This document shows, piece by piece, positions 10,053-64,000 of a DNA stretch of 64,000 bases. Source of the stretch: Marinococcus sp. PL1-022 (GTDB lineage Bacteria > Bacillota > Bacilli > Bacillales > Marinococcaceae); the NCBI RefSeq assembly GCF_033845285.1, contig NZ_JAWXCX010000001.1, positions 2,185,495 to 2,249,494 of the forward strand. The letters run 5' to 3'. How positions within the stretch are numbered: the stretch's first letter is position 1; every line of letters begins with the position of its first letter. The translations under genes and the position numbers were made by a program. Below the pieces are notes generated by a model. It ran no database searches and had not been told where the DNA came from. It saw only the letters and a program-made list of their open reading frames with translations.

Positions 10053-10064
10053 TTAACACTACGT

Positions 10065-10094
10065 AATAAGGCCCGGCCTTCCGGGCCTTATTTT
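10065..10094 (+). terminator. Terminator after metE
   Basis: AATAAGGCCCGG pairs with CCGGGCCTTATT, a 12-bp stem with a 4-base loop, then TT-rich sequence. Confidence 0.88.
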
Positions 10095-10117
10095 CGCATG
10101 GAAAGGATATCTCATTT

Positions 10118-10537
10118 ATGGCTGTTACCACTACATTTTTAAACAAACGATCCGATTACAAAAAAGCATATGAAGTTATTCAATCCCTGCGGCCTTCTCT
10201 CAGCTGGGAAGCCTTTAACGATTATCTCTCCCGTCACCCTTCCTATCAGCTGCTTGCTCTAAAAGAAGACGGTGCGGTAATCTCAGTAGCCGGGTTGGAG
10301 GTTCTGGAAAGCCTCGCCTGGGGCAGACACGCATGGGTTCATGAACTGGTGACGGCAGAAAGTGCCCGGTCGAGCGGCCACGGCGAGACTCTGCTCCGGG
10401 CTGTTCATCAGTACGCAGAAAAACACGGATGCACAGAAGTGATATTATCCTCCGGCCTGCAGCGCACTGACGCCCATCGCTTTTATGAACGACTCAATTA
10501 TCATGCGTCGAGCTACGTTTTCCGCCATACTTTATAA
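10118..10537 (+). CDS. GNAT-family acetyltransferase
   Basis: This 139-residue single-domain protein has the Gcn5-related N-acetyltransferase fold. The acetyl-CoA loop region is VHELVTAESARSSGHGETLL (about residues 83-102), a slightly divergent form of the Q/RxxGxG/A motif. The C-terminal RTDAHRFYERLNY is typical of the last helix and strand. The substrate is unknown. The start ATG follows GGAAAGGA. It lies between two terminators and is its own unit. Confidence 0.85.
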   Translation: MAVTTTFLNKRSDYKKAYEVIQSLRPSLSWEAFNDYLSRHPSYQLLALKEDGAVISVAGLEVLESLAWGRHAWVHELVTAESARSSGHGETLLRAVHQYAEKHGCTEVILSSGLQRTDAHRFYERLNYHASSYVFRHTL

Positions 10538-10540
10538 CGC

Positions 10541-10579
10541 AAAAAACTCTGCCCCGTTTAAGGGCAGAGCTTCTTTTTT
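10541..10579. terminator. Bidirectional terminator
   Basis: CTCTGCCC and GGGCAGAG form the stem, with T runs on both strands. It is shared by the GNAT gene and the convergent MMPL gene. Confidence 0.88.
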
Positions 10580-13241
10580 ATCGCTGCTGCTTTTGTTTTT
10601 TCTTAGGATTCTTTTCTTCCGAATTAAAGCTGATCAGCGCCGGTATTAACAACGGCAGTACAATCAGGCCAAACAGCAGCAGTCCGGTAATGACAACCGT
10701 CGCTACTTCGAGAAGCGTAAGCACTCCCGACGGAAGCATTGCCGCGAATGTTCCTGACAAAATGATCGCTGCTGTAATAATTACAGTGCCCATTTTAATC
10801 ATTGCCGTCTGCATGCCTGTACGCACGCCGGCTTTCGCTTCTTCATTGTATCTGCTTAACAGGAAGATGGAATAATCCACTCCCAGAGCTACAAGCATAA
10901 CAAATCCGAAGAACGGCACCGGCCAGGCAATACCCGGATAGCCAAATCCGTTCACAAAAATCAATTCTGTCACAGCCATTGCGGTGAAATACGCGAGTAC
11001 AAGCCCGCCGATAATATAAAGCGGCTGAATAATATTACGAAGCAGAATGATGAGTATCGCAAAAATGCCGATAAGCACGATTAGCACGGTCCGGTCAAAA
11101 TCACTGGAGCTGACCGACTGCAGATCGCTGTTCACACTCGGTACCCCTCCGTATTCGATCGTCGAATCTTCAAGCGGCGTGCCCTGCGTATTCATTTCTA
11201 CAACCTCTTTAACCTCTTCTGCGCTTTGGATTGCTTTTTTGGAATAAGGGTCTGCGTTCAATCCAACTTCAATAGTCATGCCATTTTCATTGTCGAATAC
11301 ATAATTGGAGGCGCCGTCCTGAAAGTCTTCATTCTCGATGGTATCCTCCGGAAGGTACACGCCGGTACCTTCAACGTAATTGGCTTCAGATACTTCTCCA
11401 GTAAAGGTTTCCGCGCTTTCAAGGCCGTCACTGATTTCCGTGAGCCCGTCGCGGGAATCAGAAACCCCGTTTTCGAGTTCCCCGAGCGTCTCAGTCAGCT
11501 GCTCCAGCTCTTCTGTCTGCTGGTCAAGCTCCTGCTGCCCTTCTTCAAGACCGCCTTGAATCTCTGTAATCTGCTGGCTGATTCCGGTCAGCTGCTCCGA
11601 AGCTGCTGCCGCCTCCTGAGGGGAAGAAGCATTCGCCAGCTGGGTGCTCACCTGCTCAAGTGCTGTATTTACCTCGCCAAGGCCGTCAGCTGCGTCCTGC
11701 AATGAGGAGTTTTCTGTATCGTTGCTTCCCAGCTGCTCCTGAATGGAGCCCAAACCTTCTTCGACATCCTGCAGTCCATTTGCAGTCTCTTCAATGCCGT
11801 CGCGGGCATCTCTGATACCAGTGCTCACATCCTCCAGCTGATTGTTTACATAAATATCGTCAATAACATCTCCTGCAGGCCTCGTGGCGCTGCGCACCGC
11901 CTCCACCTCTTCAAGATTGGAAATCGAGCGGCTTAAGTCCTCTACATATGCAAGTGTCTCCGGCTCCATTACCGACTCATCCGATTCAATCACGATCTGC
12001 ATTGGAAGCGCCTGCCCGGAGCCAAGCCCTTCTTCAATTAAGTTAAGTCCGGTAACTTCTTCAGTGTCCTGGTCAATTTCATCAATCGTATCGTAAGACC
12101 GCGAATTATCAAATGTTAATAACAGCGGCACCGTCACGACAGCCACAATAAGAATGGCAAGCAGCGGCCGGAACACGGACACGCGGCTCAGCCATTTCCA
12201 TATTTTACTGTCAGCATGGCCATTGTGAAGCTTCGAGGGCCAAAATAAAGCTTTTTTCAGGGTCAGCATAAAGAATGGCAGAACCGTCCAAAGAATGCCC
12301 GTTAACACGACAATACCGACCGCCACTCCGACGCCGGACTGAAAGACGGAGAAGTTGGCGAATCCGATCGCCGTAAAGCCGACAAGCACAGCGAGCGCGC
12401 TGTAGACCATCGTCTTGCCGGCTGTTTTGTACGTCTGTATGATGGCTTTTTTATAGTCAAGGCCGGCAGCCAGTTCCTCCCGGTACCTGCTTAAGAGAAG
12501 AATACAGTAATCGGTGCCGATCCCAAACAGCACAGCTACCAGAAAAATCTGCGTATAGTTGGAGACCGGAAAGTCAAACCAGTCTACCAAATACGCGATA
12601 ACCGACTGGCTGATCAGATACGTAAGACCGACTGCCACAAGCGGTACAAATGGAGTAATAACCGCACGGAAAACAACAAACAGCAGCGCTAAAATTAACA
12701 CTACGGTAATCACTTCCGTACGCTCCAGTCCTTCCTGGCTCGCTTCATTTACCTGCTGATTTAAAAGCGATTCCCCGGTGACGTACATTTCCATATCCGA
12801 AGCTTCATTGAGATCACGGATTTCTTCGGCAGCATTAACCGCTGTATCATTGTCTCCTTCTATAGAGATGGGAATAACAACGACATTTTCTTCTGAGGCC
12901 ACCAGCTGTTCTTCTGTTTCCTCACTGCCAAAGGGATCCGTAACCTCTGAGACCCCTTCAGTGTTTTCTTCTTCAATAGCAGTAATCAGCGATTGAATAT
13001 TTTCCTGTTCTTGTTCACCAGCCTGATTTTCTGTTTGGATCACAGCGCTGATGGTATTGCCGCCCTCACCATTTTCGTCCAATATTTCCTGAGCCTGGGA
13101 GGACGTTTCTTCCTCCGGTATTTGCAGTGTCTCTTTATCAGCGGCCAAATTGGATAAACTCGGGGAAACGACGGTAAGTACTACGGTGAAAATAACTATT
13201 AATGCAGCTATCCACCAGCGAAACTGTAGTATTGTTTTCAT
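10578..13241 (-). CDS. RND/MMPL-family exporter
   Basis: The 887-residue protein has the twelve-helix, two-repeat plan of the MMPL branch of the RND superfamily, with large loops after helices 1 and 7. Conserved helix 4-type segments include GIGTDYCILLLSRYREE and ALGVDYSIFLLSRYNEE. The second outside loop (about residues 480-600) is rich in Gln, Glu and Gly and predicted coiled coil. Length and context match B. subtilis YdgH, which lies next to the MarR gene ydgG. It would export lipids or lipophilic drugs using the proton gradient. Its ATG overlaps the TGA of the upstream marR gene by four bases, indicating translational coupling. Confidence 0.92.
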   Translation of the reverse strand: MKTILQFRWWIAALIVIFTVVLTVVSPSLSNLAADKETLQIPEEETSSQAQEILDENGEGGNTISAVIQTENQAGEQEQENIQSLITAIEEENTEGVSEVTDPFGSEETEEQLVASEENVVVIPISIEGDNDTAVNAAEEIRDLNEASDMEMYVTGESLLNQQVNEASQEGLERTEVITVVLILALLFVVFRAVITPFVPLVAVGLTYLISQSVIAYLVDWFDFPVSNYTQIFLVAVLFGIGTDYCILLLSRYREELAAGLDYKKAIIQTYKTAGKTMVYSALAVLVGFTAIGFANFSVFQSGVGVAVGIVVLTGILWTVLPFFMLTLKKALFWPSKLHNGHADSKIWKWLSRVSVFRPLLAILIVAVVTVPLLLTFDNSRSYDTIDEIDQDTEEVTGLNLIEEGLGSGQALPMQIVIESDESVMEPETLAYVEDLSRSISNLEEVEAVRSATRPAGDVIDDIYVNNQLEDVSTGIRDARDGIEETANGLQDVEEGLGSIQEQLGSNDTENSSLQDAADGLGEVNTALEQVSTQLANASSPQEAAAASEQLTGISQQITEIQGGLEEGQQELDQQTEELEQLTETLGELENGVSDSRDGLTEISDGLESAETFTGEVSEANYVEGTGVYLPEDTIENEDFQDGASNYVFDNENGMTIEVGLNADPYSKKAIQSAEEVKEVVEMNTQGTPLEDSTIEYGGVPSVNSDLQSVSSSDFDRTVLIVLIGIFAILIILLRNIIQPLYIIGGLVLAYFTAMAVTELIFVNGFGYPGIAWPVPFFGFVMLVALGVDYSIFLLSRYNEEAKAGVRTGMQTAMIKMGTVIITAAIILSGTFAAMLPSGVLTLLEVATVVITGLLLFGLIVLPLLIPALISFNSEEKNPKKKQKQQR

Positions 13242-13690
13242 CTTTGCTGTCCACCTTTTTGCAGTATGCTTCGTATTTTATGAAAGGTCTGGATAAACTG
13301 CTCTACTTCTTCCTCGTTTATGTCCTGAAGCAGCTCGGACACATACTCATTGACGAGACGGGTATGCCGCTCATGAGATGCTTTGCCTTCAGCGGTAATT
13401 TCCACGTATTTCACCCGCTGATCTTCACTGCTGGGCACAAATTTTACATAGCCGTTGTTTTCCATTTTTTTCAGACGATTGGACAAGGCGCTCTTTCCGA
13501 CGATCATCATGTTCTGGATTTCTGTCGATGTCATTGGTCCGTATTTCATTAAAAAATCCAAAAGCTCCACCTGTTCCGGAGAAATTTGATTTAATAAATT
13601 ATCCGGTATTTCGTTTGTTATACGATTCCTGCCGAGAATCATTACTTCTGCGAACAGTTCCACCGCTTCTTCCATTTTTTGATCCTTCAT
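13238..13690 (-). CDS. MarR-family regulator of the MMPL exporter
   Basis: The 150-residue protein has a winged helix-turn-helix: MTSTEIQNMMIVGKSALSNRLKKMENNGYVK (about residues 51-81), with the wing at SSEDQRVKYVEIT. MarR proteins bind as dimers and usually repress their own operon until a ligand binds. The start is the ATG at 13690, 4 bases after CAGGGGGTGT. An upstream in-frame start at 13744 would run through the promoter and is rejected. It forms an operon with the exporter gene, overlapping it by four bases. It resembles B. subtilis YdgG in position and type. Confidence 0.92.
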   Translation of the reverse strand: MKDQKMEEAVELFAEVMILGRNRITNEIPDNLLNQISPEQVELLDFLMKYGPMTSTEIQNMMIVGKSALSNRLKKMENNGYVKFVPSSEDQRVKYVEITAEGKASHERHTRLVNEYVSELLQDINEEEVEQFIQTFHKIRSILQKGGQQR

Positions 13691-13696
13691 TAGTAC

Positions 13697-13744
13697 ACCC
13701 CCTGAACTATATAGTAGTTTACCCCCTGAACTTCTATACGTCAA
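13697..13744 (-). promoter_or_regulatory. marR-MMPL promoter with direct repeats
   Basis: On the minus strand TTGACG (13744-13739), a 17-base spacer and TAAACT (13721-13716) form a promoter. The 12-base sequence AGTTCAGGGGGT occurs twice, at 13732-13721 and 13708-13697, 24 bases apart start to start. One copy is in the spacer and touches the -10; the other is in the leader and includes the ribosome binding site. The repeats are a candidate MarR operator pair. Confidence 0.6.
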
Positions 13745-13781
13745 GCATTTGCAGATAATGAACCAAAAATTAATTTTCTAC

Positions 13782-13806
13782 AAAAAAAACGCCCGAAGCC
13801 GGACGT
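13782..13806 (-). terminator. Terminator of the FadR-type regulator gene
   Basis: On the minus strand ACGTCCG pairs with CGGGCGT around a 4-base loop and is followed by eight T, immediately after the stop codon. Confidence 0.88.
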
Positions 13807-13807
13807 A

Positions 13808-14533
13808 TTAATCATTCATATGCTCAATACCTTTAGACAGCACCTTTTCCACGTTCGTTAAATGAGCACTCATTGCTTCTCCGGCTGCTTCCGGTTCCTG
13901 CTCATCGATAGCAGTATAAATCCGTTGGTGTTCGTCAAGAAGCCGGCGGAACGAACGTTTTTCTGAAAAGAGCCAGGCCCTTCTCGTTTCATACATTGTT
14001 TTCTGCATCGTGTCGGAGAGCCGGCCCATCATCTGTGTTAATAAGGTATTTCCGGAAGCCTCCACGATCGCAAGATGAAAGCGGACATCCGCCTGCTCCC
14101 CGAGATCATCGGTCCCGCCTGCTGCCTGCATCATCTGCTCCAGCGCAGTACGCATCTGCTCGAGATCTTCCTCCGAACGACGGACTGCTGCAAGCTCGGA
14201 AGCCCCTTTTTCAAGCACATGGCGGACTTCAAAAAGCTCTTTCATTTCCTGTTTTGAAATGAGGGTGCGGCTGTTCATCATTTCTGTAATAGTGGAAAAA
14301 TCATACTGATTCACAAATGTGCCTTCGCCCTGCTTTATGGTTACAATTCCCACGGCACGCAGGGCGCTTAATGCTTCCCGGACAGCTGAACGGCTGACGT
14401 CAAATTTTTCCGAGAGAGTGACTACAGAGTCCAGCTTTTCGCCGGGCTTCACTTCGCCCCGCTTGATCATGTCCTCAATCTTTTCCCGGATGACTTCAGC
14501 TATTTTTTTAGTTTCAATACGGTCCATGGTCAT
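13808..14533 (-). CDS. GntR regulator, FadR subfamily
   Basis: This 241-residue protein has a GntR winged helix (KPGEKLDSVVTLSEKFDVSRSAVREALSALRAVGIV, about residues 26-60) followed by the all-helical FCD domain. The FCD metal and ligand histidines are visible in DVRFHLAIVEASGN (about 148) and DEHQRIYTAI (about 198), with the last in MSAHLTNVEKV. Such proteins sense small carboxylates; LutR of B. subtilis, which responds to lactate, is of this type. The start is placed at the ATG at 14533; an ATG at 14527 is equally possible because no strong ribosome site decides. It is divergent from the CstA-family gene, so regulation of that transporter is the natural guess. Confidence 0.88.
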   Translation of the reverse strand: MTMDRIETKKIAEVIREKIEDMIKRGEVKPGEKLDSVVTLSEKFDVSRSAVREALSALRAVGIVTIKQGEGTFVNQYDFSTITEMMNSRTLISKQEMKELFEVRHVLEKGASELAAVRRSEEDLEQMRTALEQMMQAAGGTDDLGEQADVRFHLAIVEASGNTLLTQMMGRLSDTMQKTMYETRRAWLFSEKRSFRRLLDEHQRIYTAIDEQEPEAAGEAMSAHLTNVEKVLSKGIEHMND

Positions 14534-14792
14534 CACCCGCTCTTCCTTCCGTTCATTATTTACCGCTATTGTACCACCCACGGAACACTTATACTACGGT
14601 TTACCTCTATGATAGATAAGGTCATCACATGGGTAAGACTCGCTTCATTTGAGCGTGGTTAAAATCGCTTTTCATTGCTATGTGAAAAAAGTTTTGTTTT
14701 TTCCATGTAGACGATTGTCATTTTGGAAGGAACAAGTTAGAATTTATAACAATGGTTTTCTCCAGTACATTGCAGCAAAGGTGGAACGTTTT

Positions 14793-16229
14793 ATGTTATC
14801 TTTCTTTATCGCTATTATCCTGCTAATTGCCGGCTACATCGTTTACGGATCCTTCGTGGAGAAAACGTTCGGCATCAATGACCGTAACAAAACGCCTGCG
14901 TACCATAACGAAGGGCATATCGACTATTCTCCTCTCAGCTGGTGGCGCGGCAGCCTTATCCAGCTGTTAAATATTGCTGGCCTCGGGCCCATTTTCGGCG
15001 CGCTGCTTGGAGCACTGTATGGGCCGATCGTATTTTTCTGGATCGTACTGGGCACCATTTTCGCCGGGGCCGTACACGACTATTTTTCCGGCATGCTTTC
15101 TCTTCGCCATAACGGAGCCCAGTTTCCAGGACTCGTAGGAAAGTATCTCGGGCGTCCAATGCAGAGCTTCATCAATATCGTCAGCATTTGCTTAATGATC
15201 CTTGTGGCTGCTGCCTTTATTGCCGGACCGGCTGAATTGATTGCAAGCCTCACACCGCTAAGCTTTCTCACCGCCATTTTTGCTATTTTTGCATATTTTT
15301 TACTGGCTGCCCTGCTTCCAATTCAACGGGTCATCGGAAAGATTTATCCTCTTTTCGGCGCAGTGCTTATTTTTATGGCGGTCAGTATTGCCGGTGCCCT
15401 GGTGTTTTCAGACGTAACGATTCCAAACGTTACGCTCGCCAATCTTCATCCCGATGAACTGCCGGTATGGCCGATGGTGATGGTGACTATTTCCTGCGGG
15501 GCCATTTCCGGATTTCACAGCACCCAGAGTCCAATCATCGCGCGCACGCTGAAAAAAGAATCAGAAGGGCGCAAGGTGTTTTACGGAGCTATGATTGCCG
15601 AAGGCATCATTACCCTCATATGGGCCGCAGCCGGCATGGCCTTCTTCGGAGGCACTGGCGGGCTTCAGGCAGCCATAGCCGCCGGAGGCCCGGCCGGCGC
15701 TGTCAATGAAATTTCTACGAGCCTTCTTGGCACACTCGGCGGGGTGCTTGCCGTTCTTGGTGTTATTTTGCTTCCTATTACGACAGGCGACACTGCCCTT
15801 CGTTCTTCACGGATGATGCTTGCAGAGCTCGTGGCAAACGCTGTATCCCTAAAAGGAAGGCCGCTTTTAATTCTTACTATTATTCCGGTCGTTATTCCGG
15901 CTTTGTTTTTATCCATGATCGATTATTCGTTTTTGTGGAGATATGTAGGGTGGACCAACCAGCTCGTCGCTACCGTGATGCTTTGGACCGGCTGCATGTA
16001 CCTGCTTTATGCCGGCAAAAACCATTTCATCTGCGGCGTGCCGGCGATGTTTATGACAGCTGTCGTCTGCTCCTATATCTTTTACGCCCCTGAAGGATTA
16101 GGTCTTCCGTACGGCCTTTCCATGACGATTGGGGCCGTCCTGACTGTATTCGTGCTGGCCTGGTACGTCTTTAAAATAATCTCCGTCAAACGGCAGGCAG
16201 CCTACGAACAGGTCGAAAAATCTATATAA
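14793..16229 (+). CDS. cstA: CstA-family (carbon starvation) transporter
   Basis: The 478-residue membrane protein has the CstA signature, including GSFVEKTFGI near the N-terminus, RGSLIQLLNIAGLGPIFGALLG (about residues 50-71), GAVHDYFSGMLSLRH and ISCGAISGFHSTQSPI. E. coli CstA and BtsT (about 700 residues) take up pyruvate and possibly peptides. This copy is about 200 residues shorter and lacks their C-terminal part, as do other short Bacillaceae members. The start is the ATG at 14793, preceded by AAAGGTGG; earlier in-frame starts add residues with no family similarity. The divergent FadR-type gene probably controls it in response to a carboxylate such as pyruvate or lactate. Confidence 0.9.
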   Translation: MLSFFIAIILLIAGYIVYGSFVEKTFGINDRNKTPAYHNEGHIDYSPLSWWRGSLIQLLNIAGLGPIFGALLGALYGPIVFFWIVLGTIFAGAVHDYFSGMLSLRHNGAQFPGLVGKYLGRPMQSFINIVSICLMILVAAAFIAGPAELIASLTPLSFLTAIFAIFAYFLLAALLPIQRVIGKIYPLFGAVLIFMAVSIAGALVFSDVTIPNVTLANLHPDELPVWPMVMVTISCGAISGFHSTQSPIIARTLKKESEGRKVFYGAMIAEGIITLIWAAAGMAFFGGTGGLQAAIAAGGPAGAVNEISTSLLGTLGGVLAVLGVILLPITTGDTALRSSRMMLAELVANAVSLKGRPLLILTIIPVVIPALFLSMIDYSFLWRYVGWTNQLVATVMLWTGCMYLLYAGKNHFICGVPAMFMTAVVCSYIFYAPEGLGLPYGLSMTIGAVLTVFVLAWYVFKIISVKRQAAYEQVEKSI

Positions 16230-16237
16230 ATGGTTTT

Positions 16238-16267
16238 AGCTGCCTGCTGTTGTGGGCAGCTTTTTTT
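16238..16267 (+). terminator. Terminator after cstA
   Basis: AGCTGCC pairs with GGCAGCT and is followed by seven T. Confidence 0.88.
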
Positions 16268-16352
16268 AGTGCAGGAGAGGCTGATGAAAACGCTGCACGT
16301 TCATGCTACACTAAATACAGATATGAAATTTTTATAAAGAAGGCGGCTTATC

Positions 16353-17426
16353 ATGCACTACTGGAGAAAAATTAAGCGGCGGTTCATCGGAGGCAGATTG
16401 ATCAAAACTGGGATAGCTGTTCTGCTCACTGCCTTTATATGCGGTATTTTTGACCTCCCGCAGGCTTTCGCTGTTATTACAGCCATTGTAACCCTCGAAC
16501 CGACGGCAGCAGCTTCCATACGTAAAGGCGCCCAGCGTCTTCCTGCCACCGTCATTGGAGCAGCTCTCGCTATGATCACCGTTTATTTGTTCGGGCCAAC
16601 CCCGATAACGTATATGATAGCTTCTGTGTTAACACTTTATTTCTGTAACATGCTGCGTCTCCGGGACGGGATGCTCGTTGCAACGATTACGGCAGTGGCA
16701 ATGATCCCCACAGCGAGCGATCATTATTTTCTGACTTTCGTAGAACGAGTTGGCACGACGTTTATCGGCCTTGCGATCTCTACAGTTATTAATTTAACGA
16801 TTCTTCCTCCAAAATTTTCTTCTTTGCTTGCAGAACAGAATCGGAAAATGTTCGTGGAGACCGCTGAAATTTTTGAACTGCGTCTTGAGGAAGTAATGAA
16901 CGGCCGGCGTCCATCTGCACAGGTCATGGATAAATACCATCAGCTGGAGAGTGACCTGGAGCGGGCCATCCAACTCTCTTATTACCAGCAGGAAGAATGG
17001 AAATATCATAAAAAAAAGGATGTAGAAGCAAGAAGATTTACCCGGGAGCAGCGCCAGCTCCATTTTTTAGAACGCATAAGTTATCATATTAACCGTTTAT
17101 TCAATTTTGAGACAGATGACTGCACGTTTACGAAAGAAGAGGTGCAGTTGATTGGTGACATTATTCCTGCGATGTCACAAACAATTCATCACTTCGGGGA
17201 ACGCATCTCTGATGAGCAGTTCAGGTTGATTGAACGCCTTGACCGGTGCTTCTGGAAAAAACGCCAGCATGCATCGCGGCCGAACATAAAAAAATATCAT
17301 CATCATTTTTCTACAGACGTCATTATTATCTTTGCCCTCCTGTCCATTCACGATGTCCTCGAAGAGCTCGAAGAACTTCATTTCCCCGAACAGCCCGAAC
17401 AACAGCAAACGCCCCGGCCTTCCTAA
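16353..17426 (+). CDS. Aromatic acid exporter (ArAE) family protein
   Basis: This 357-residue protein has an N-terminal half of four to six membrane helices (about residues 18-150) with the ArAE/FUSC pattern, including AFAVITAIVTLEPTAAASIRKG and LRDGMLVATITAVAMIP. A cytoplasmic, charged, helical C-terminal half follows, as in B. subtilis YgaE (UPF0421). Relatives export aromatic carboxylic acids, but the substrate here is unknown. The start ATG follows AGAAGGCGG. It is a one-gene unit, and its 3' end runs into a GC-rich hairpin at 17411-17436 shared with the convergent TPP enzyme gene. Confidence 0.85.
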   Translation: MHYWRKIKRRFIGGRLIKTGIAVLLTAFICGIFDLPQAFAVITAIVTLEPTAAASIRKGAQRLPATVIGAALAMITVYLFGPTPITYMIASVLTLYFCNMLRLRDGMLVATITAVAMIPTASDHYFLTFVERVGTTFIGLAISTVINLTILPPKFSSLLAEQNRKMFVETAEIFELRLEEVMNGRRPSAQVMDKYHQLESDLERAIQLSYYQQEEWKYHKKKDVEARRFTREQRQLHFLERISYHINRLFNFETDDCTFTKEEVQLIGDIIPAMSQTIHHFGERISDEQFRLIERLDRCFWKKRQHASRPNIKKYHHHFSTDVIIIFALLSIHDVLEELEELHFPEQPEQQQTPRPS

Positions 17427-17436
17427 GGCACGGGGC
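17411..17436. terminator. GC-rich hairpin between convergent genes
   Basis: GCCCCG-GCCTT pairs with AAGGC-A-CGGGGC with one bulged A. The T tract is broken, so termination efficiency is uncertain. Confidence 0.6.
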
Positions 17437-17458
17437 ATTTATTTATCAGTTTTTCTTT

Positions 17459-19099
17459 TTAGGATTTACTGAAGGAGGATAAAAATTTCACTCTGTCTCC
17501 CATTGGAGGAGTCTGTTCATCAATAAGCTGAATTTCCAGCACAGCCGGAGAATTGTCTGAACAGAGGCTTTGATAAAGCTCAGGGGTAATATCATCCATG
17601 GAACGGACCGTGGCATACTTTACCCCCATCTGTTCTGCAATAGCTGCCACCGGTACCATCGACTGTTCAAAACGGTCATGCATTCTTCCGTATTGAAGCC
17701 GGTGCCCGTGATACACCATTCCGAGCCTGGCATTATTCATCACAATGAAAAGAATAGGCAGCTGATATTCTTTGGCTGTCAGTACTTCCATCCCATGCAT
17801 AAAAAAGCATCCATCTCCCGTAATACTTGTAACGAAACGATTCGGCTCGGCGAGTTTTGCTCCAAGCGCATTGGAAATGCCCGAACCCATAGCACCAAAA
17901 TGGACGTTGATGTCATACGTATCCGGTTTTTTCACGTCCATGTAATGGATCACATAGCTCATAAACTCTCCGATATCCACCGTAAAAAGCGTATCCTCCG
18001 GCATCTGGGACTGGAGCTGATGAAGCACGTTCTGGGTTTCAAATTTTTCGTTTACAGCTTTCGGAGGAACACCTGTCCACTGAGGCCCCGCATCGTTTTC
18101 TGCCGGAAGACGAAGCCGCCTGTTTATTTCTCCGATTGTCGTACGCACATCCCCAAGCAGGGAAATATCCACTTTATACTTGCGGTCAAATACCGTCGGG
18201 TCATGGTCAAGCTGAATCACAAAACGATCGGCAGTCAAAGCAGGATTCCAGTTGTTCGTAGCCGTTTCTCCGAGACTCGATCCTATGACAAATACAATGG
18301 AATGATCGCTGTTTTCCATTACTTCCGTAGCTGTTTCATGCCCGGCAAAGCCGTACACACCACACGCATTTGGGTGATCCGACGGTACAAGCCCTTTTGC
18401 CTGAGGCGTAGTAACAACCGGCCAGTCCAAATAATCCACCAGGTTCATAACTCCGGGTAAGGCGTCTCTGGCTCCCTGGCCCAGGAAAATGATTCCCTGA
18501 CGATTACTGGAGAGTATGCGGGTGGCTTCCGCCACATTGCTTTCAACCGGGGACAAACGGCGTTTCGCCGGATATTCGGGCAGCTCAGTGCTGCCTTCTA
18601 GCATAGATAATTGAATATTGATCGGGACCGCTACATGCACGGGGCCGGGTATGCCGGCGAATGCTTTACATACCGCCTCCTTGAACACTTCACGCACTTC
18701 ATGGATGCTTTCCACCCGACGGCTGTATTTGGTCACCGGAGTAAACATTGGAACAACATCAAGCTCCTGGGAAGCATTCAGGCCAACCGTCGATGTCGGC
18801 ACAGAGCCGGTAATAAAAAGCACAGGAGTCTGCTCCCGCATTGCATTAGCTGCTCCGGAAAGAAGGTTTGTCGCCCCGGGTCCGCTGCTTCCTATACATA
18901 CACCCAGATTACCCGAGCGCTTCGCGTAGGCGGAAGCCATATAACCGGCCGCGCCTTCATGCTTTGTAACAACAGGCGTAATTTCGTCATGCTCATACAT
19001 TTTATCAAAAAGAGCATTCACCGATCCCGCCGGTATACCGAAAACATAGTCCAGGCCACCCTGCCGCAAATAATCAATTATCCACTGAGCTGCTTTCAT
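17459..19099 (-). CDS. Thiamine pyrophosphate-dependent enzyme, acetolactate synthase-like
   Basis: This 546-residue enzyme has the three-domain plan of the acetolactate synthase/pyruvate oxidase family: PYR domain (about 1-165) with the catalytic glutamate in TKHEGAAGYMA, a central domain (about 185-320), and a PP domain (about 350-530) with the TPP-magnesium motif GDG...NN (GDGCFFMHG to VMNNARLGMVYHG). After NN, true acetolactate synthases usually carry a tryptophan-glutamine pair (VxQWQ); here the sequence is VYHGHR. The reaction, probably decarboxylation of a 2-oxo acid, is therefore not fixed. The start ATG follows GGGGGA. It lies 28 bases downstream of the GGDEF-EAL gene on the same strand and may be cotranscribed. 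Confidence 0.85.
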   Translation of the reverse strand: MKAAQWIIDYLRQGGLDYVFGIPAGSVNALFDKMYEHDEITPVVTKHEGAAGYMASAYAKRSGNLGVCIGSSGPGATNLLSGAANAMREQTPVLFITGSVPTSTVGLNASQELDVVPMFTPVTKYSRRVESIHEVREVFKEAVCKAFAGIPGPVHVAVPINIQLSMLEGSTELPEYPAKRRLSPVESNVAEATRILSSNRQGIIFLGQGARDALPGVMNLVDYLDWPVVTTPQAKGLVPSDHPNACGVYGFAGHETATEVMENSDHSIVFVIGSSLGETATNNWNPALTADRFVIQLDHDPTVFDRKYKVDISLLGDVRTTIGEINRRLRLPAENDAGPQWTGVPPKAVNEKFETQNVLHQLQSQMPEDTLFTVDIGEFMSYVIHYMDVKKPDTYDINVHFGAMGSGISNALGAKLAEPNRFVTSITGDGCFFMHGMEVLTAKEYQLPILFIVMNNARLGMVYHGHRLQYGRMHDRFEQSMVPVAAIAEQMGVKYATVRSMDDITPELYQSLCSDNSPAVLEIQLIDEQTPPMGDRVKFLSSFSKS

Positions 19100-60671: not shown

Positions 60672-61244
60672 ATGCATCATTCATCAGCATCACCATTCAG
60701 ACCCTTCCCCACCCTGGAGACGTCAAGGCTCCGGCTCCGGGCTCTGCGGTATTCAGATCTTGAAGATATTTACGAATACGCCTCCAACCCGCTTGTCTCC
60801 CGCAACGTTTTGTGGGACACTCACAGAAGCCGCGGAGAAACAAAAGATTTTCTGGATATCACGATGAACTCCTATAAATACGGCGACCGGGCACCGTTTG
60901 GCATCGAACGCAAGGATTCCGGCAAAGTAATCGGCACTATCGATTTTGTGCATTGGGACCGTGGCCACGCCAATGGGGAAATTGGATACACGCTCGCCCC
61001 GGATCATTGGAACCAGGGGTTCGGCTCGGAAGCAGCGTGGGAAATCATCCGCTTCGGCTTTGAAGATATGGGCCTGCACCGGATTGAAGCCCGGTGTTTT
61101 ATCGAAAATACAGCCTCAGCCAAGGTGATGGAAAAGGTCGGCATGGTGCATGAAGGCACACTGCGCCGTTCCCTGTTGATCCAGGGGGCGCGGCGGGATG
61201 TAATGATTTACGCAATTTTAAAAACAGAATGGAAAAATAATTAA
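60672..61244 (+). CDS. GNAT acetyltransferase, RimJ/RimL type
   Basis: This 190-residue protein of the ribosomal-protein alanine acetyltransferase-like group begins LETSRLRLRALRYSDLEDIYEYASNP, has GEIGYTLAPDHWNQGFGSEAAWEIIRF (acetyl-CoA motif NQGFGSEA, about residues 115-125), and ends with LHRIEARCFIENTASAKVMEKVGMVHEG. The substrate is unknown. The start ATG is 7 bases after AAAGGATG. It is a unit of its own between two terminators. Confidence 0.9.
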   Translation: MHHSSASPFRPFPTLETSRLRLRALRYSDLEDIYEYASNPLVSRNVLWDTHRSRGETKDFLDITMNSYKYGDRAPFGIERKDSGKVIGTIDFVHWDRGHANGEIGYTLAPDHWNQGFGSEAAWEIIRFGFEDMGLHRIEARCFIENTASAKVMEKVGMVHEGTLRRSLLIQGARRDVMIYAILKTEWKNN

Positions 61245-61271
61245 AACAGCCGGCGATGCGGCTGTTTTTTT
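61243..61271. terminator. Bidirectional terminator
   Basis: AAACAGCCG pairs with CGGCTGTTT, with T and A runs. It is shared by the acetyltransferase gene and the convergent dgkB gene. Confidence 0.88.
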
Positions 61272-62157
61272 ACGGACAGAACAATTCAATATGCTGGTAT
61301 AAATTTTCAAACGTCGTCGGCAGATGACCTCCGTATTCCCCGTCGAGATTCAGCTGCATGTCTTCTTCTGCTTCTATACGAAGCTGTTTCGCTTTAAAAT
61401 ACTTTATTTTAGGATTCTCCAGATGCCTGCCGCGTAAGGCCTGGCGCAGCAGCTGGCTGAATTCAAACATTGTCATCTTCTGTACGATCATCACATCAAA
61501 ATAGCCGTCATTATACTCTGCCTGCGGAAGAAGCTTTTCAAAACCGCCGACAGAATTGGTGTTGGATACGAGAAACATTGTAATTTCTTCCTCGAGAAAC
61601 TTTCCATCATATTCAACAGTCGTCATCTGCGGCTGCAGGGACCAGAATTTCTCAAACCCCTTAATGAAATAGGCAGCCTGTCCCAGGGCCGTTTTCAGTC
61701 CCTTTGGGGTGTCATAGGTGAGTTCTGTCAGCTTCCCGCCCGCGGCAATATTAATAAAGTATGAGCCATTCGCCTTTCCTATATCAATCTTCTGGGTGCG
61801 CCCGCGTACAAATACGTCACAGACTTCTCCAATTTCTTTTCCCTGCAGGCCAAGAGCACGCGCAAAATCATTCGTCGTTCCAGCAGGAATAAGCCCTACT
61901 TTGGGACGCCACTCCTGTTCAGCAATTCCGTTGATAACCTCAAAAATAGTTCCGTCCCCGCCTACGGCAATCACGGCTTCGAACCTGTCCTCTGAGGCGC
62001 GGCGTGCCTCGTCCCGGGCATCCCCTTCCCCGCGGGTCATAAATGCCGATGTTTCGTACCCCGCCTGCTCCATCCGGTCCAATATATAGGGCACCTGCCG
62101 CTCCATCTGTTCTCTTCCAGACGTTGGATTGTAAATTATTCTTGCTCGTTTTCGCAT
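61270..62157 (-). CDS. dgkB: Diacylglycerol kinase
   Basis: DgkB (295 residues, normal length) phosphorylates diacylglycerol, a by-product of lipoteichoic acid synthesis, to phosphatidic acid and recycles it to phospholipid. The catalytic-domain motifs are IIYNPTSGRE (residues 8-17), AVGGDGTIFEVINGI (about 64-78) and IPAGTTNDFARALG (about 90-103), with the metal-site aspartate in NDGYFDVMIV (about 217). The start ATG is at 62157. In B. subtilis dgkB is next to rlmCD (yefA); here about 6 kb of other genes lie between. Confidence 0.95.
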   Translation of the reverse strand: MRKRARIIYNPTSGREQMERQVPYILDRMEQAGYETSAFMTRGEGDARDEARRASEDRFEAVIAVGGDGTIFEVINGIAEQEWRPKVGLIPAGTTNDFARALGLQGKEIGEVCDVFVRGRTQKIDIGKANGSYFINIAAGGKLTELTYDTPKGLKTALGQAAYFIKGFEKFWSLQPQMTTVEYDGKFLEEEITMFLVSNTNSVGGFEKLLPQAEYNDGYFDVMIVQKMTMFEFSQLLRQALRGRHLENPKIKYFKAKQLRIEAEEDMQLNLDGEYGGHLPTTFENLYQHIELFCP

Positions 62158-62284
62158 ATTTTAACCCCTATTACATCGAAGATTTCAATTCGTTTGAACA
62201 ATGTTTGAACAATATATAAAAGAACTATCTTTTTCCACCATTGTTACATGCGTTACTAATTAATTGTATACTATTGTTAATTCA
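62158..62284 (-). other. AT-rich intergenic region
   Basis: It holds no gene. AGAACTATCTTTT at 62221-62233 resembles one half of the palindrome AGAACTATAGTTCT found upstream of the PlcR-like gene. Confidence 0.35.
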
Positions 62285-63220
62285 TTAAACAGTAGCAGCT
62301 GTAGGGTCGATACTATTTGGCTTAAACTTGGAATATTGTGCAAAAGTAGCCCTTTGAAATCTTAGATAATTTTCTTCTATAAAATCATAAAACATTTTTT
62401 GCCCTTTATCCTTTAGGATAAACATGGACTTCTCCATACAACGCAAAGCATTTTTATATTCACCTATATAAAATAAAGCTACGCCCTTTTGGTAATATAG
62501 TTCACCCAATAGGTATACTGATTCTATGTCATATATATAAGTTAATCCTTCATTTGCGATTTCAAGGCTTTTTTCAAACTGCATGGCTTTAGAATATACA
62601 ATACACAAATTCATATAAATTTTTGTTTTGGAAGTATCCCATTGCGCTACAGGAAGTTTTGTATAAAGAATAAGGGCCTTATTAAAATAATAAATGGCGT
62701 CTTCGTATTCGTTCATATCCATATACACTGTGCCAATATTTATATAAATACCAATGTCTTCTTCTGTGATGCTTAAAGAACCAGTATCTACATCCAAGGC
62801 TAATTGTAATAATTCCAGAGATTCTTCTTTTTCAAACGTTAATTTAGAATGACAGGCTGCTCTTTTCCATAACAAATATTTAAGGTGCACTGGCTTTCGA
62901 AACAGCGGGTTTTTTAATTCCTGTCTAATGATTTTCATTGCTTCTTCTAATTCATAAATACGCACTAATTTATCAATTTTATCCTTAGTTTCCTGTATAT
63001 AGTTAAACCGGGGAGCTTCATGGTCTTCAAAAAAATAGCTGATTTTCACGCCTAGTTTTATTGCCATTTGATGGAGAATTTCTGCGGTCGGCTGCATTTC
63101 TCCTCGTTCAATTTTGGACACGGCTCTTTGAGAACAAATATTTTCAGCCAGTTCTCTTTGGCTCACCTCGTAGTACTGTCTTAAGTCCTTTAATTTTTTT
63201 CCTATATTGGCTTCTTCCAT
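62285..63220 (-). CDS. RRNPP-family quorum-sensing regulator, PlcR-like
   Basis: This 311-residue regulator has an N-terminal XRE helix-turn-helix (SQRELAENICSQRAVSKIERGE, about residues 19-40, given here as SQRELAENICSQ and AVSKIERGE) and a C-terminal array of about five TPR-like helical repeats (about 75-300). Examples are GIYINIGTVYMDMNEYEDAI, KTKIYMNLCIVYSKAM and LGELYYQKGVALFYIGEY. This is the plan of PlcR, NprR and related receptors that bind a re-imported peptide in the TPR groove. PlcR itself is 285 residues. The start ATG follows AGAGGTGGTT. A 14-bp palindrome lies 15 bases upstream, and a peptide gene faces it 176 bases away. Its likely targets are unknown. Confidence 0.88.
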   Translation of the reverse strand: MEEANIGKKLKDLRQYYEVSQRELAENICSQRAVSKIERGEMQPTAEILHQMAIKLGVKISYFFEDHEAPRFNYIQETKDKIDKLVRIYELEEAMKIIRQELKNPLFRKPVHLKYLLWKRAACHSKLTFEKEESLELLQLALDVDTGSLSITEEDIGIYINIGTVYMDMNEYEDAIYYFNKALILYTKLPVAQWDTSKTKIYMNLCIVYSKAMQFEKSLEIANEGLTYIYDIESVYLLGELYYQKGVALFYIGEYKNALRCMEKSMFILKDKGQKMFYDFIEENYLRFQRATFAQYSKFKPNSIDPTAATV

Positions 63221-63234
63221 ATAACCACCTCTTA

Positions 63235-63248
63235 AGAACTATAGTTCT
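63235..63248. promoter_or_regulatory. Palindromic operator-like site upstream of the PlcR-like gene
   Basis: AGAACTATAGTTCT is a perfect 14-bp palindrome just upstream of the ribosome binding site of the regulator gene, in its leader. It is a candidate autoregulatory site for a dimeric HTH protein. Confidence 0.6.
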
Positions 63249-63334
63249 CATCACTCTAGATTTTACCATAATTTCAGAGCTTTCTCCTAATTATTGCGCA
63301 ATGATCGCTTTAGAAGCCCAAAGATATTTATATT

Positions 63335-63356
63335 TATATGTGTCATAATGCATATA
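63335..63356. promoter_or_regulatory. PlcR-box-like site upstream of the peptide gene
   Basis: TATATG and CATATA are perfect reverse complements separated by 10 bases. The known PlcR box is TATG-N8-CATA; here the inner spacing is TATG-N10-CATA. It is 41 bases before the peptide gene's start codon, and no good -35 sequence lies at the usual place, as expected for an activator-dependent promoter. Confidence 0.55.
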
Positions 63357-63396
63357 GAAAATAATTACAAAGTTTCTTGTAGGAGGGTTGTTTTCA

Positions 63397-63501
63397 GTGA
63401 AAGCTAATTTGATTAAATTGACTGTAGCGGTAGGATTATTAACGACGGCTGGCGCTGCTGGCGATTTCCAGTTACTAGTTAACTTACCAGGAATAATGTA
63501 A
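63397..63501 (+). CDS. Candidate secreted signalling peptide, PapR-like
   Basis: This 34-residue open frame starts with a GTG at 63397, 9 bases after AGGAGGG, and ends with a TAA at 63499-63501. The N-terminus is Met-Lys-Ala-Asn-Leu-Ile-Lys then a hydrophobic stretch to about residue 22, like a Sec signal peptide. The C-terminal 12 residues are DFQLLVNLPGIM. The last seven, VNLPGIM, follow the pattern of PapR heptapeptides (for example SDLPFEY and ADLPFEF), with Leu-Pro at positions 3-4. It is divergent from a PlcR-like regulator. I infer a pheromone precursor secreted, trimmed and re-imported. It is too short for usual gene calling. Confidence 0.72.
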   Translation: MKANLIKLTVAVGLLTTAGAAGDFQLLVNLPGIM

Positions 63502-63579
63502 TTATTTTTAAATAAGCGTAAACCGTCACTCTCGACACTTTTCACACCATTAACCAAGCTTACCCCTGTTATATTTTGT

Positions 63580-63616
63580 ATCCCTTGCAGTTTAGCTGGC
63601 AGGGGATTCTTTTTTA
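63580..63616 (+). terminator. Terminator after the peptide gene
   Basis: ATCCCTTGC pairs with GCAGGGGAT (9 bp, one G-T) and is followed by TCTTTTTT. The position, 78 bases after the peptide stop codon, supports a short transcript. Confidence 0.8.
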
Positions 63617-63658
63617 TTACTTATTGCCTGACCATTTATTGGCATTGGAGGAGCGGCC

Positions 63659-63970
63659 ATGCATCCGGACCAACATATTGCTTATTTTGTAGATCAATTT
63701 TTGTACCAGCTGGATCGTGCGGATGACCCGGCGGAGCTCTGCCAGCTCCGCGACCGCGTATTTGAACAGGGTGCCCTGATTGATACACGCATCCCTTATA
63801 TTGAAATGATGGGAACGATCTGGCATAAACACCCCGCCACTATTCAGAAGGCACTTGAGGAAGAGCCTGTCTGCTACGGGCTTTTGGTTGACATGTTTGA
63901 GCATATTTCTTCGAACCAGTTTGTCTATATGCGCTGGCGCCTCCAGGAATGGGCCAGGCTTTCTGCGTGA
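63659..63970 (+). CDS. Unknown 103-residue protein
   Basis: I do not recognise this small helical, acidic protein. It begins MHPDQHIAYFVDQFLYQLD and ends FVYMRWRLQEWARLSA. It has no signal peptide, membrane span or known motif. The start ATG follows GGAGGAG by 5 bases, which supports translation. Its base composition is like that of the main genome, unlike the AT-rich quorum-sensing cassette before it. It may be under control of the PlcR-like regulator, but a terminator lies between them. Confidence 0.65.
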   Translation: MHPDQHIAYFVDQFLYQLDRADDPAELCQLRDRVFEQGALIDTRIPYIEMMGTIWHKHPATIQKALEEEPVCYGLLVDMFEHISSNQFVYMRWRLQEWARLSA

Positions 63971-64000
63971 TTCGAAAAAGGGTTATATTCGGCAAAATAT

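What the first reader, a model, noticed from the sequence alone, without database searches (positions are those of the whole stretch)
62285..63501. Complete PlcR/PapR-like quorum-sensing cassette with a new 34-residue peptide gene
An HTH-TPR regulator with the PlcR plan faces, 176 bases away, a 34-codon frame with a strong ribosome binding site. The frame encodes a signal-peptide-like N-terminus and a C-terminus of VNLPGIM. That heptamer has the Leu-Pro core at the same places as known PapR peptides (ADLPFEF, SDLPFEY). In B. cereus papR lies downstream of plcR in the same direction; here the pair is divergent, as in Rgg/SHP systems. The whole cassette is AT-rich and lies at a junction, which fits acquisition. 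What is seen: both genes, the sequence of the peptide, and the spacing. What is known: PlcR/PapR. What is inferred: that they work together, and the mature peptide.
Basis: partly seen in the sequence, partly recalled or inferred. Interest (0 to 1): 0.88.

Follow-up and report, generated by a model that had tools for sequence, protein, structure and literature searches.

The report
Swappable pheromone-receptor pair in Marinococcus
A salt-loving bacterium carries a receptor gene back to back with a tiny gene for a likely secreted signal peptide, and close relatives carry strongly different versions of the pair inside otherwise near-identical DNA, as if strains had swapped their chemical language as one unit.

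Summary
A 311-aa HTH-TPR regulator (62285-63220, minus) lies 176 bp from a divergent 34-codon GTG-start ORF (63397-63501, plus) with AGGAGG, ending VNLPGIM. The regulator's best solved-structure match is PlcR. The peptide is no chance ORF: 8 of 8 orthologues keep it, and 44 of 55 homologous loci have an RBS-bearing, secretion-like ORF with [LIMV]P near its C-terminus (28 divergent, 15 convergent, 1 same-strand; shuffles expect 0.4 in all). New here: (1) a palindrome, AGAACTATAGTTCT or a one-base variant, at the regulator promoter in 8 of 8 genomes with the orthologue and 0 of 21 without. (2) Regulator, intergenic region and peptide behave as one exchangeable allele: against a same-species genome the flanks are 98-99% identical, the regulator 70.5%, the peptide 55%, and tree tests reject a shared history. 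Divergence peaks at residues 190-230, around invariant K200. Most likely this is a PlcR/PapR-type pheromone switch with pherotype-like alleles. The locus is old; only the allele looks newly acquired. Binding, specificity and regulon are untested.

The parts
62285..63220 (-). PlcR-like HTH + TPR (RNPP) regulator, 311 aa, proposed intracellular receptor for the peptide
   Evidence: ORF; Pfam HTH_3 and RNPP_C above cut-off; best PDB match PlcR, E 4.5e-12 alone and 8.8e-20 with an 8-member profile
63397..63501 (+). 34-codon propeptide gene (GTG start): basic and hydrophobic N-terminus, conserved GD[F/V], C-terminus VNLPGIM
   Evidence: conserved divergent ORF in 8 of 8 orthologous loci; shuffle control
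63459..63498 (+). codons of the conserved C-terminal part GDFQLLVNLPGIM, the proposed secreted form; the last seven codons (63478-63498, VNLPGIM) are the proposed core
   Evidence: GD[F/V] in 8 of 8 peptides, 13-14 residues from the end; cleavage and trimming are inferred
63381..63387 (+). ribosome binding site AGGAGGG of the peptide gene
63235..63248 (.). perfect palindrome AGAACTATAGTTCT, proposed operator, 15-28 bp upstream of the regulator start codon
   Evidence: conserved in 8 of 8 orthologous intergenic regions; present at this place in 8 of 29 family genomes, exactly those with the orthologue
63339..63349 (+). proposed extended -10 element (TGTGTCATAAT) of the peptide promoter
   Evidence: conserved in the 8-sequence alignment (position), picked by eye; the generic promoter scan gave no enrichment
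63580..63617 (+). hairpin plus T-run, proposed terminator of the peptide transcript
   Evidence: fold z-score -3.42, 0 of 200 shuffles as stable; aligned in all 8 sequences; not flagged by the simple scan
62310..63512 (.). exchangeable allele block: regulator except its last few codons, intergenic region and peptide gene
   Evidence: 40-column identity profile of G000 against G015; tree tests

Best explanation
This is a self-contained peptide pheromone and receptor pair of the PlcR/PapR kind. The 34-aa propeptide is exported, cut near the conserved GD (leaving about GDFQLLVNLPGIM) and trimmed towards a C-terminal peptide around VNLPGIM. It re-enters the cell through an oligopeptide permease and binds the TPR pocket of the regulator, which then changes its binding to the palindrome AGAACTATAGTTCT between the two genes, resetting regulator expression and probably peptide expression. 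In Marinococcus the pair occurs as at least three divergent alleles that move as one unit by homologous recombination in the conserved flanks, so that near relatives probably answer to different peptides. Shown here: the genes, their linkage, the conserved palindrome, the co-divergence and the allele replacement. Inferred: export, cleavage, import, binding, direction of regulation and specificity.
For: PlcR is the best solved match by sequence, by profile and by predicted fold. A divergent, RBS-bearing, secretion-like ORF with an LP C-terminus is in 8 of 8 orthologues, and an LP ORF is in 44 of 55 loci against about 0.4 expected. The palindrome is at the regulator promoter in 8 of 8 genomes with the orthologue and in 0 of 21 without. 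G000 against G015: flanks 98.8 and 97.9% identical, regulator 70.5, intergenic 54.0, peptide 55.2. AU tests: flanks reject G000+G014 (p 7.6e-8 and 6.9e-14), the cassette rejects G000+G015 (p 4.7e-62). The densest receptor divergence is at residues 190-229 and 192-231 in two allele comparisons (p 0.0034 and 0.0016), while K200, aligned to the PlcR lysine 197 said to contact the peptide C-terminus, is invariant in 8 of 8. The positions of the two PlcR lysines that select the PapR glutamate (K87, K89) are R/Y or S/W, and these peptides have no such glutamate. One SBP_bac_5 peptide-binding protein gene is in the genome.
Against: No transcript, peptide or binding data. No trained signal-peptide predictor was run. 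The predicted structure is weak (mean pLDDT 64.6, HTH under 50; Foldseek TM 0.48-0.52 to PlcR). No second clear operator in the genome: with 2 mismatches 18 sites against 49 for the backward-read control, so no regulon is supported. 11 of 55 loci lack the peptide by my criteria. Only five Marinococcus genomes were compared, the clades tested were named after seeing the identity profile, and specificity of the alleles was not measured. At the paralogue locus the same-species pair is only 94% and 89% identical, so exchange in this genus is not confined to this locus.
Confidence: 0.8

Rival explanations
1. The pair signals as described, but the allele differences do not change specificity: an AT-rich block was exchanged neutrally among related species.
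For: Exchange is visible elsewhere too (paralogue locus 94% and 89% between the same-species genomes). The predicted cores VNLPGIM and VNLPGVA differ only in their last two residues. Between-class dS of the regulator is near saturation (1.3-2.4 for the G000 or G014 against G013 or G015 pairs), so old neutral divergence is possible.
Against: The divergent block fits the receptor-peptide unit closely. Receptor divergence is clustered at residues 190-230 in two comparisons. [quoted passage not shown]
Confidence: 0.25
2. The peptide is not the regulator's ligand but a small membrane peptide or toxin-like product that the regulator controls.
For: A short hydrophobic protein opposite a regulator also fits a toxin-like gene; some homologous loci in another genus have a Hol_Tox-like 31-aa ORF beside the regulator.
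Against: The hydrophobic stretch is followed by a polar 13-14 residue tail with an LP core kept across distant homologues. The peptide itself has no Pfam or NCBIfam match. In the genus with Hol_Tox-like ORFs the LP peptide is a separate ORF.
Confidence: 0.08
3. The peptide acts on the producing cell as a timer or self-sensing loop, or as a trans-envelope signal of export and import capacity, rather than as a population signal.
For: Only the local operator was found, and the pair is a closed loop; nothing here measures cell density.
Against: Allelic diversification as a linked unit is the pattern known for shared pheromones (B. cereus group PlcR/PapR classes, passages).
Confidence: 0.2
4. The 34-codon ORF is a chance reading frame.
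For: GTG start, 34 codons, no database family.
Against: Kept in 8 of 8 orthologues with RBS; 28 divergent LP ORFs observed against 0.03 in shuffles; G000 against G014 has 6 synonymous and 3 non-synonymous changes, none of the 3 in the C-terminal part.
Confidence: 0.01

Closest known systems
PlcR/PapR of the Bacillus cereus group
   Same: HTH plus TPR receptor (best PDB match); short propeptide gene next to it; L-P core at places 3-4 of the heptamer; allele classes in which receptor and peptide differ together (four classes in B. cereus, passages)
   Different: Genes divergent, not co-directional (PlcR/PapR order as given in the finding and recalled); core PGIM, PGVA or PGAA instead of PFEF-like; Lys87 and Lys89 not kept; a 14-bp palindrome instead of a PlcR box between the genes; no regulon found
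PlcRa/PapRa of B. cereus / B. thuringiensis
   Same: PlcR paralogue with the peptide gene upstream of the regulator; peptide with an I-P core (CSIPYEY) (PMC4147580 section 7; PMC3519770 passages), much like the paralogue here (RDIPHQY)
   Different: PapRa7 is internal in its propeptide, and only one PapRa pherotype was reported; here the core is C-terminal and at least three alleles exist
RRNPP quorum-sensing systems as defined by RRNPP_detector (PMC10075063)
   Same: Meets the criteria that could be checked: receptor of 250-500 aa with TPRs, propeptide of 10-100 aa, adjacency within 400 bp, strong RBS (passages)
   Different: SignalP was not available here; whether this cluster is among the 34 of that paper could not be checked (supplements not held); Marinococcus does not occur in its main text
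Rgg/SHP systems of streptococci
   Same: Divergent arrangement of regulator and short hydrophobic peptide gene (recalled; the review PMC13361665 appeared only in a search listing)
   Different: The regulator matches RNPP_C and PlcR, with Rgg_C not listed for it; SHPs are exported by PptAB (passages), whereas this propeptide has a longer Sec-like N-terminus

Membership tests
RRNPP (cytoplasmic peptide-receptor) systems | Receptor of 250-500 aa with a peptide-binding TPR domain | tested here: met
   311 aa; TPR_1, TPR_2, TPR_12 and RNPP_C above Pfam cut-offs
RRNPP (cytoplasmic peptide-receptor) systems | Adjacent small propeptide gene with RBS | tested here: met
   34 codons, AGGAGG, 176 bp away, conserved in 8 of 8 orthologues
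RRNPP (cytoplasmic peptide-receptor) systems | Propeptide exported by Sec and matured outside | tested here: inconclusive
   Basic plus hydrophobic N-terminus and small residues before the conserved GD, read by eye; no trained predictor and no export data
RRNPP (cytoplasmic peptide-receptor) systems | Peptide re-imported by an oligopeptide permease | not testable with these tools
   One SBP_bac_5 gene exists in the genome; import itself cannot be tested
PlcR/PapR subfamily | Receptor closest to PlcR among solved structures | tested here: met
PlcR/PapR subfamily | papR downstream of plcR in the same direction | tested here: not met
   Divergent in 8 of 8 orthologues
PlcR/PapR subfamily | Peptide with LPFEF-like core and glutamate read by Lys87/Lys89 | tested here: not met
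   Core LPGIM; aligned positions R87 and Y89
PlcR/PapR subfamily | Proline core and lysine contacting the peptide C-terminus (PlcR K197) | tested here: met
   L-P in 8 of 8 peptides; K200 invariant in 8 of 8. The contact itself is not tested
PlcR/PapR subfamily | PlcR box in the promoters of the pair | tested here: not met
   Neither spelling of the box occurs with up to one mismatch in the intergenic region; the matches in the 19.9-kb locus lie elsewhere
PlcR/PapR subfamily | Peptide-dependent DNA binding | not testable with these tools
   needs purified protein
Rgg/SHP | Rgg C-terminal domain in the receptor | tested here: not met
   Rgg_C not listed for the window protein at E up to 1; weak, below cut-off, in two orthologues

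The most novel reading that the evidence does not exclude
Pheromone gene, receptor gene and their shared operator form a compact language cassette of about 1.2 kb at a fixed chromosomal address. Halophilic Marinococcus species exchange it whole by homologous recombination in the conserved flanks, so that strains of one species differ in the peptide they obey while sharing nearly everything else around it. The hypervariable receptor block (residues 190-230) would then hold the specificity code, read against the last two residues of the peptide.
Probability: 0.55. Interest if true: 0.68.

Novelty: new variant of a known kind. Interest (0 to 1): 0.57.

Why it matters
PlcR/PapR is studied almost wholly in the B. 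cereus group. Here a related system in non-pathogenic halophiles shows receptor and pheromone replaced together between near relatives with sharp boundaries, which gives a small natural set (three allele classes, short peptides, one hypervariable receptor block) for learning how peptide specificity evolves. The wider scan suggests that many Bacillales regulators of this kind carry unannotated LP-type peptide genes, divergent or convergent.

Tried and rejected
Recent acquisition of the whole cassette from elsewhere: rejected as the main account, because the gene order is shared by three genera. Allele replacement is kept.

A PlcR box between the genes: not found with either spelling.

A regulon found by operator search: with up to 2 mismatches the backward-read control had more sites (49) than the pattern (18). 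The only other close match, AGTACTGTAGTTCT in G000 and G015, lies inside a 336-aa ORF that looks LacI-like by eye, so it is probably chance.

Standard sigma-70 promoter scan: 8 sites against 7.5 expected, uninformative. Rfam: no match in 61000-64000.

Structure prediction from two near-identical sequences gave a weak model that still ranks PlcR first. It was not used for pocket geometry.

Literature: Marinococcus with quorum sensing and peptide gave 4 papers, Marinococcus with genome and transcriptional regulator 23 (10 listed), and PlcR-like with PapR-like or Bacillaceae 0. None of the titles listed concerns such a system; this is a weak absence, since subscription papers and supplements are not held.

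Full report
Observation. The regulator frame is 62285-63220 on the minus strand (311 aa). The peptide frame is 63397-63501 on the plus strand, 34 codons from a GTG with AGGAGGG ten bases upstream, and the gap between them is 176 bp. The heptamer VNLPGIM occurs once in the genome as a back-translated pattern.

Organism. The window lies in a 3.2-Mb genome (G000).

The regulator. Pfam finds HTH_3, several TPR models and RNPP_C above cut-off. PlcR is the best solved match: E 4.5e-12 with the single sequence and 8.8e-20 with a profile of 8 orthologues. A two-sequence AlphaFold model is weak (mean pLDDT 64.6, HTH under 50), but Foldseek still puts PlcR first (3u3w, E 5.2e-6).

The peptide in relatives. 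In the family search 19 of 29 genomes have a homologue (38 matches, 30 of which became loci). The eight closest loci (55-100% identity: G000, G014, G012, G013, G015, G002, G004, G027) all have a divergent 34-36 codon ORF with a good RBS at 168-184 bp, ending VNLPGIM (2), VNLPGVA (2), VHLPGAA (1), VSLPHAY (2) or VTLPHAY (1). GD[F/V] stands 13-14 residues from the end in 8 of 8, a likely signal-peptidase boundary by eye. The genome's own paralogue (28% identity) has a divergent ORF ending TRDIPHQY.

Control. I scanned 55 loci (30 and 25 from the order-level search, L070-L094; that search found a homologue at E up to 1e-30 in 171 of 397 genomes) with one rule: 25-60 codons, RBS at least 5 of 6, hydrophobic N-terminus, [LIMV]P near the C-terminus, within 400 bp. 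Found: divergent 28, convergent 15, same-strand 1 and 0. Thirty dinucleotide-preserving shuffles per flank expect 0.03, 0.17, 0.07 and 0.13. The loci are not independent; eleven come from one family (f21). Eleven loci (L011, L020, L031, L071, L072, L073, L076, L082, L084, L087, L091) have none by this rule; L020, L076, L082 and L084 show looser candidates. The single same-strand case (L026) may be chance.

Operator. Aligning the eight intergenic regions shows AGWACTATAGTTCT conserved next to the regulator start, a perfect palindrome (AGAACTATAGTTCT) in G000 and G014. AGWACTRTAGTWCT is found on both strands at this place in 8 of 29 family genomes, exactly those with the orthologue, and not on both strands in the other 21; the pattern read backwards gave 5 forward hits in 29 genomes. 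A second, one-strand hit in G000 and G015 lies inside a coding frame. Allowing 2 mismatches gives no enrichment in G000 (18 sites against 49 in the control), so this supports local autoregulation and says nothing about a regulon. A hairpin with a T-run after the peptide gene is stable (z -3.42) and conserved, so the peptide is probably transcribed alone.

Allele replacement. G015 is labelled the same species as G000. In an alignment of 11.7 kb from five Marinococcus genomes, G000 against G015 is 98.8% identical left of the cassette and 97.9% right of it, but 70.5% in the regulator, 54.0% in the intergenic region and 55.2% in the peptide. G000 against G014 (M. luteus) is 92.2 and 91.7% in the flanks, 90.1% in the regulator and 91.4% in the peptide. 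G015 against G013 is 93.9 and 91.7% in the flanks, 95.7% in the regulator and 96.2% in the peptide. G012 is a third class (69-77% in the regulator against the other four). In 40-column steps the break lies at about 62310 (last codons of the regulator) and about 63512 (just after the peptide stop). Trees agree: both flanks group G000 with G015 (100/100) and reject G000+G014 (p-AU 7.6e-8 and 6.9e-14); the cassette groups G000+G014 and G013+G015 and rejects G000+G015 (p 4.7e-62); peptide plus intergenic alone also rejects it (p 4.4e-119). These groups were named after seeing the identity profile, and five taxa are few. A control stretch of the window (10001-18000) is 98% identical in G015. At the paralogue locus, though, the two genomes are 94% and 89% identical over two long pieces, so other regions have mixed histories too.

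What changes in the receptor. Regulator dS between G000 and G015 is 1.38 and dN 0.24, against 0.45 and 0.02 for the paralogue. Amino-acid changes cluster: the densest 40-residue block is 190-229 for G000 against G015 (25 changes, p 0.0034) and 192-231 for G013 against G012 (18 changes, p 0.0016); the two comparisons share one allele class. Within that block K200 and N204 are invariant in 8 of 8. K200 aligns with PlcR K197, said to contact the PapR C-terminus (PMC5007282, passages); N204 aligns with PlcR N201, whose role I only recall. Lys87 and Lys89, which select the PapR glutamate, are R/Y in Marinococcus and S/W in the other two genera, matching peptides that lack a glutamate there. [quoted passage not shown] the three classes here differ at its end (GIM, GVA, GAA) and in N or H before the leucine.

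Age of the locus. In genera g3 and g11 the order GNAT gene, lipid kinase, regulator, 103-120 aa protein is the same as in the window (G004's flanks were fetched but not annotated). The cassette is 30-35% G+C in all eight genomes although flanks range from 37 to 53%. I cannot explain this constancy.

Interpretation. The best account is a pheromone-receptor switch that works like PlcR/PapR, is divergent, uses another operator and another peptide core, and exists as exchangeable alleles. It fails three features of the PlcR/PapR subfamily (gene order, LPFEF-like core with Lys87/89, PlcR box), so I file it as a variant within the RRNPP kind, not as PlcR/PapR proper. PlcRa/PapRa, with its peptide gene upstream and an IP core, is the closest described precedent (section 7 of PMC4147580; passages of PMC3519770). 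Papers seen: passages, abstract and section 7 of PMC10075063; passages of PMC9765709, PMC6568020, PMC5007282 and PMC3519770; passages and section 7 of PMC4147580; all others as search listings only.

Noticed in passing
L003:2482-2607 (G000:C1 about 581 kb), with the regulator at L003:1408-2304: A second pair of the same kind in this genome: a PlcR-like paralogue (28% identity) with a divergent 41-aa ORF ending TRDIPHQY; conserved in all five Marinococcus genomes compared (TRDLPHQY in G012).
   Followed up: partly
L096 (NC_013792.1, plasmid pBpOF4-01 of Alkalihalophilus pseudofirmus OF4), 1151-1264 minus: Unannotated divergent 37-aa ORF ending LDLPYIHT beside a 35.6%-identical regulator; the neighbouring genes include a TOMM leader-binding protein and a 46-aa hypothetical protein with a CCCGGG stretch: a possible pheromone-controlled modified bacteriocin.
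   Followed up: partly
L075, L077-L080, L082, L083, L085, L090, L093, L094: In 11 loci of family f21 the regulator faces, convergently, a 30-31 aa ORF (a 31-aa one matches Hol_Tox PF16935 below cut-off, E 0.0024) and beyond it a 43-46 aa ORF ending DEDLPYCH or DEDLPWCH.
   Followed up: partly
L016-L021: Convergent peptide ORFs with the core repeated two or three times in one propeptide (such as SLPYQHDLPYQHSLPYQH), in three genera of the family.
   Followed up: no
L002, L004-L010: The cassette keeps 30-35% G+C in all eight genomes whatever the flanking G+C (37-53%); unexplained.
   Followed up: no
window 63529-63580: Just after the cassette G000 matches G013 and G015 matches G014, the reverse of the cassette pairing; this may mark recombination ends.
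   Followed up: no
window 62300-62500: The C-terminal third of the regulator is more alike between G012 and G013 (85-92%) than the middle (62-68%), suggesting a mosaic inside the gene.
   Followed up: no
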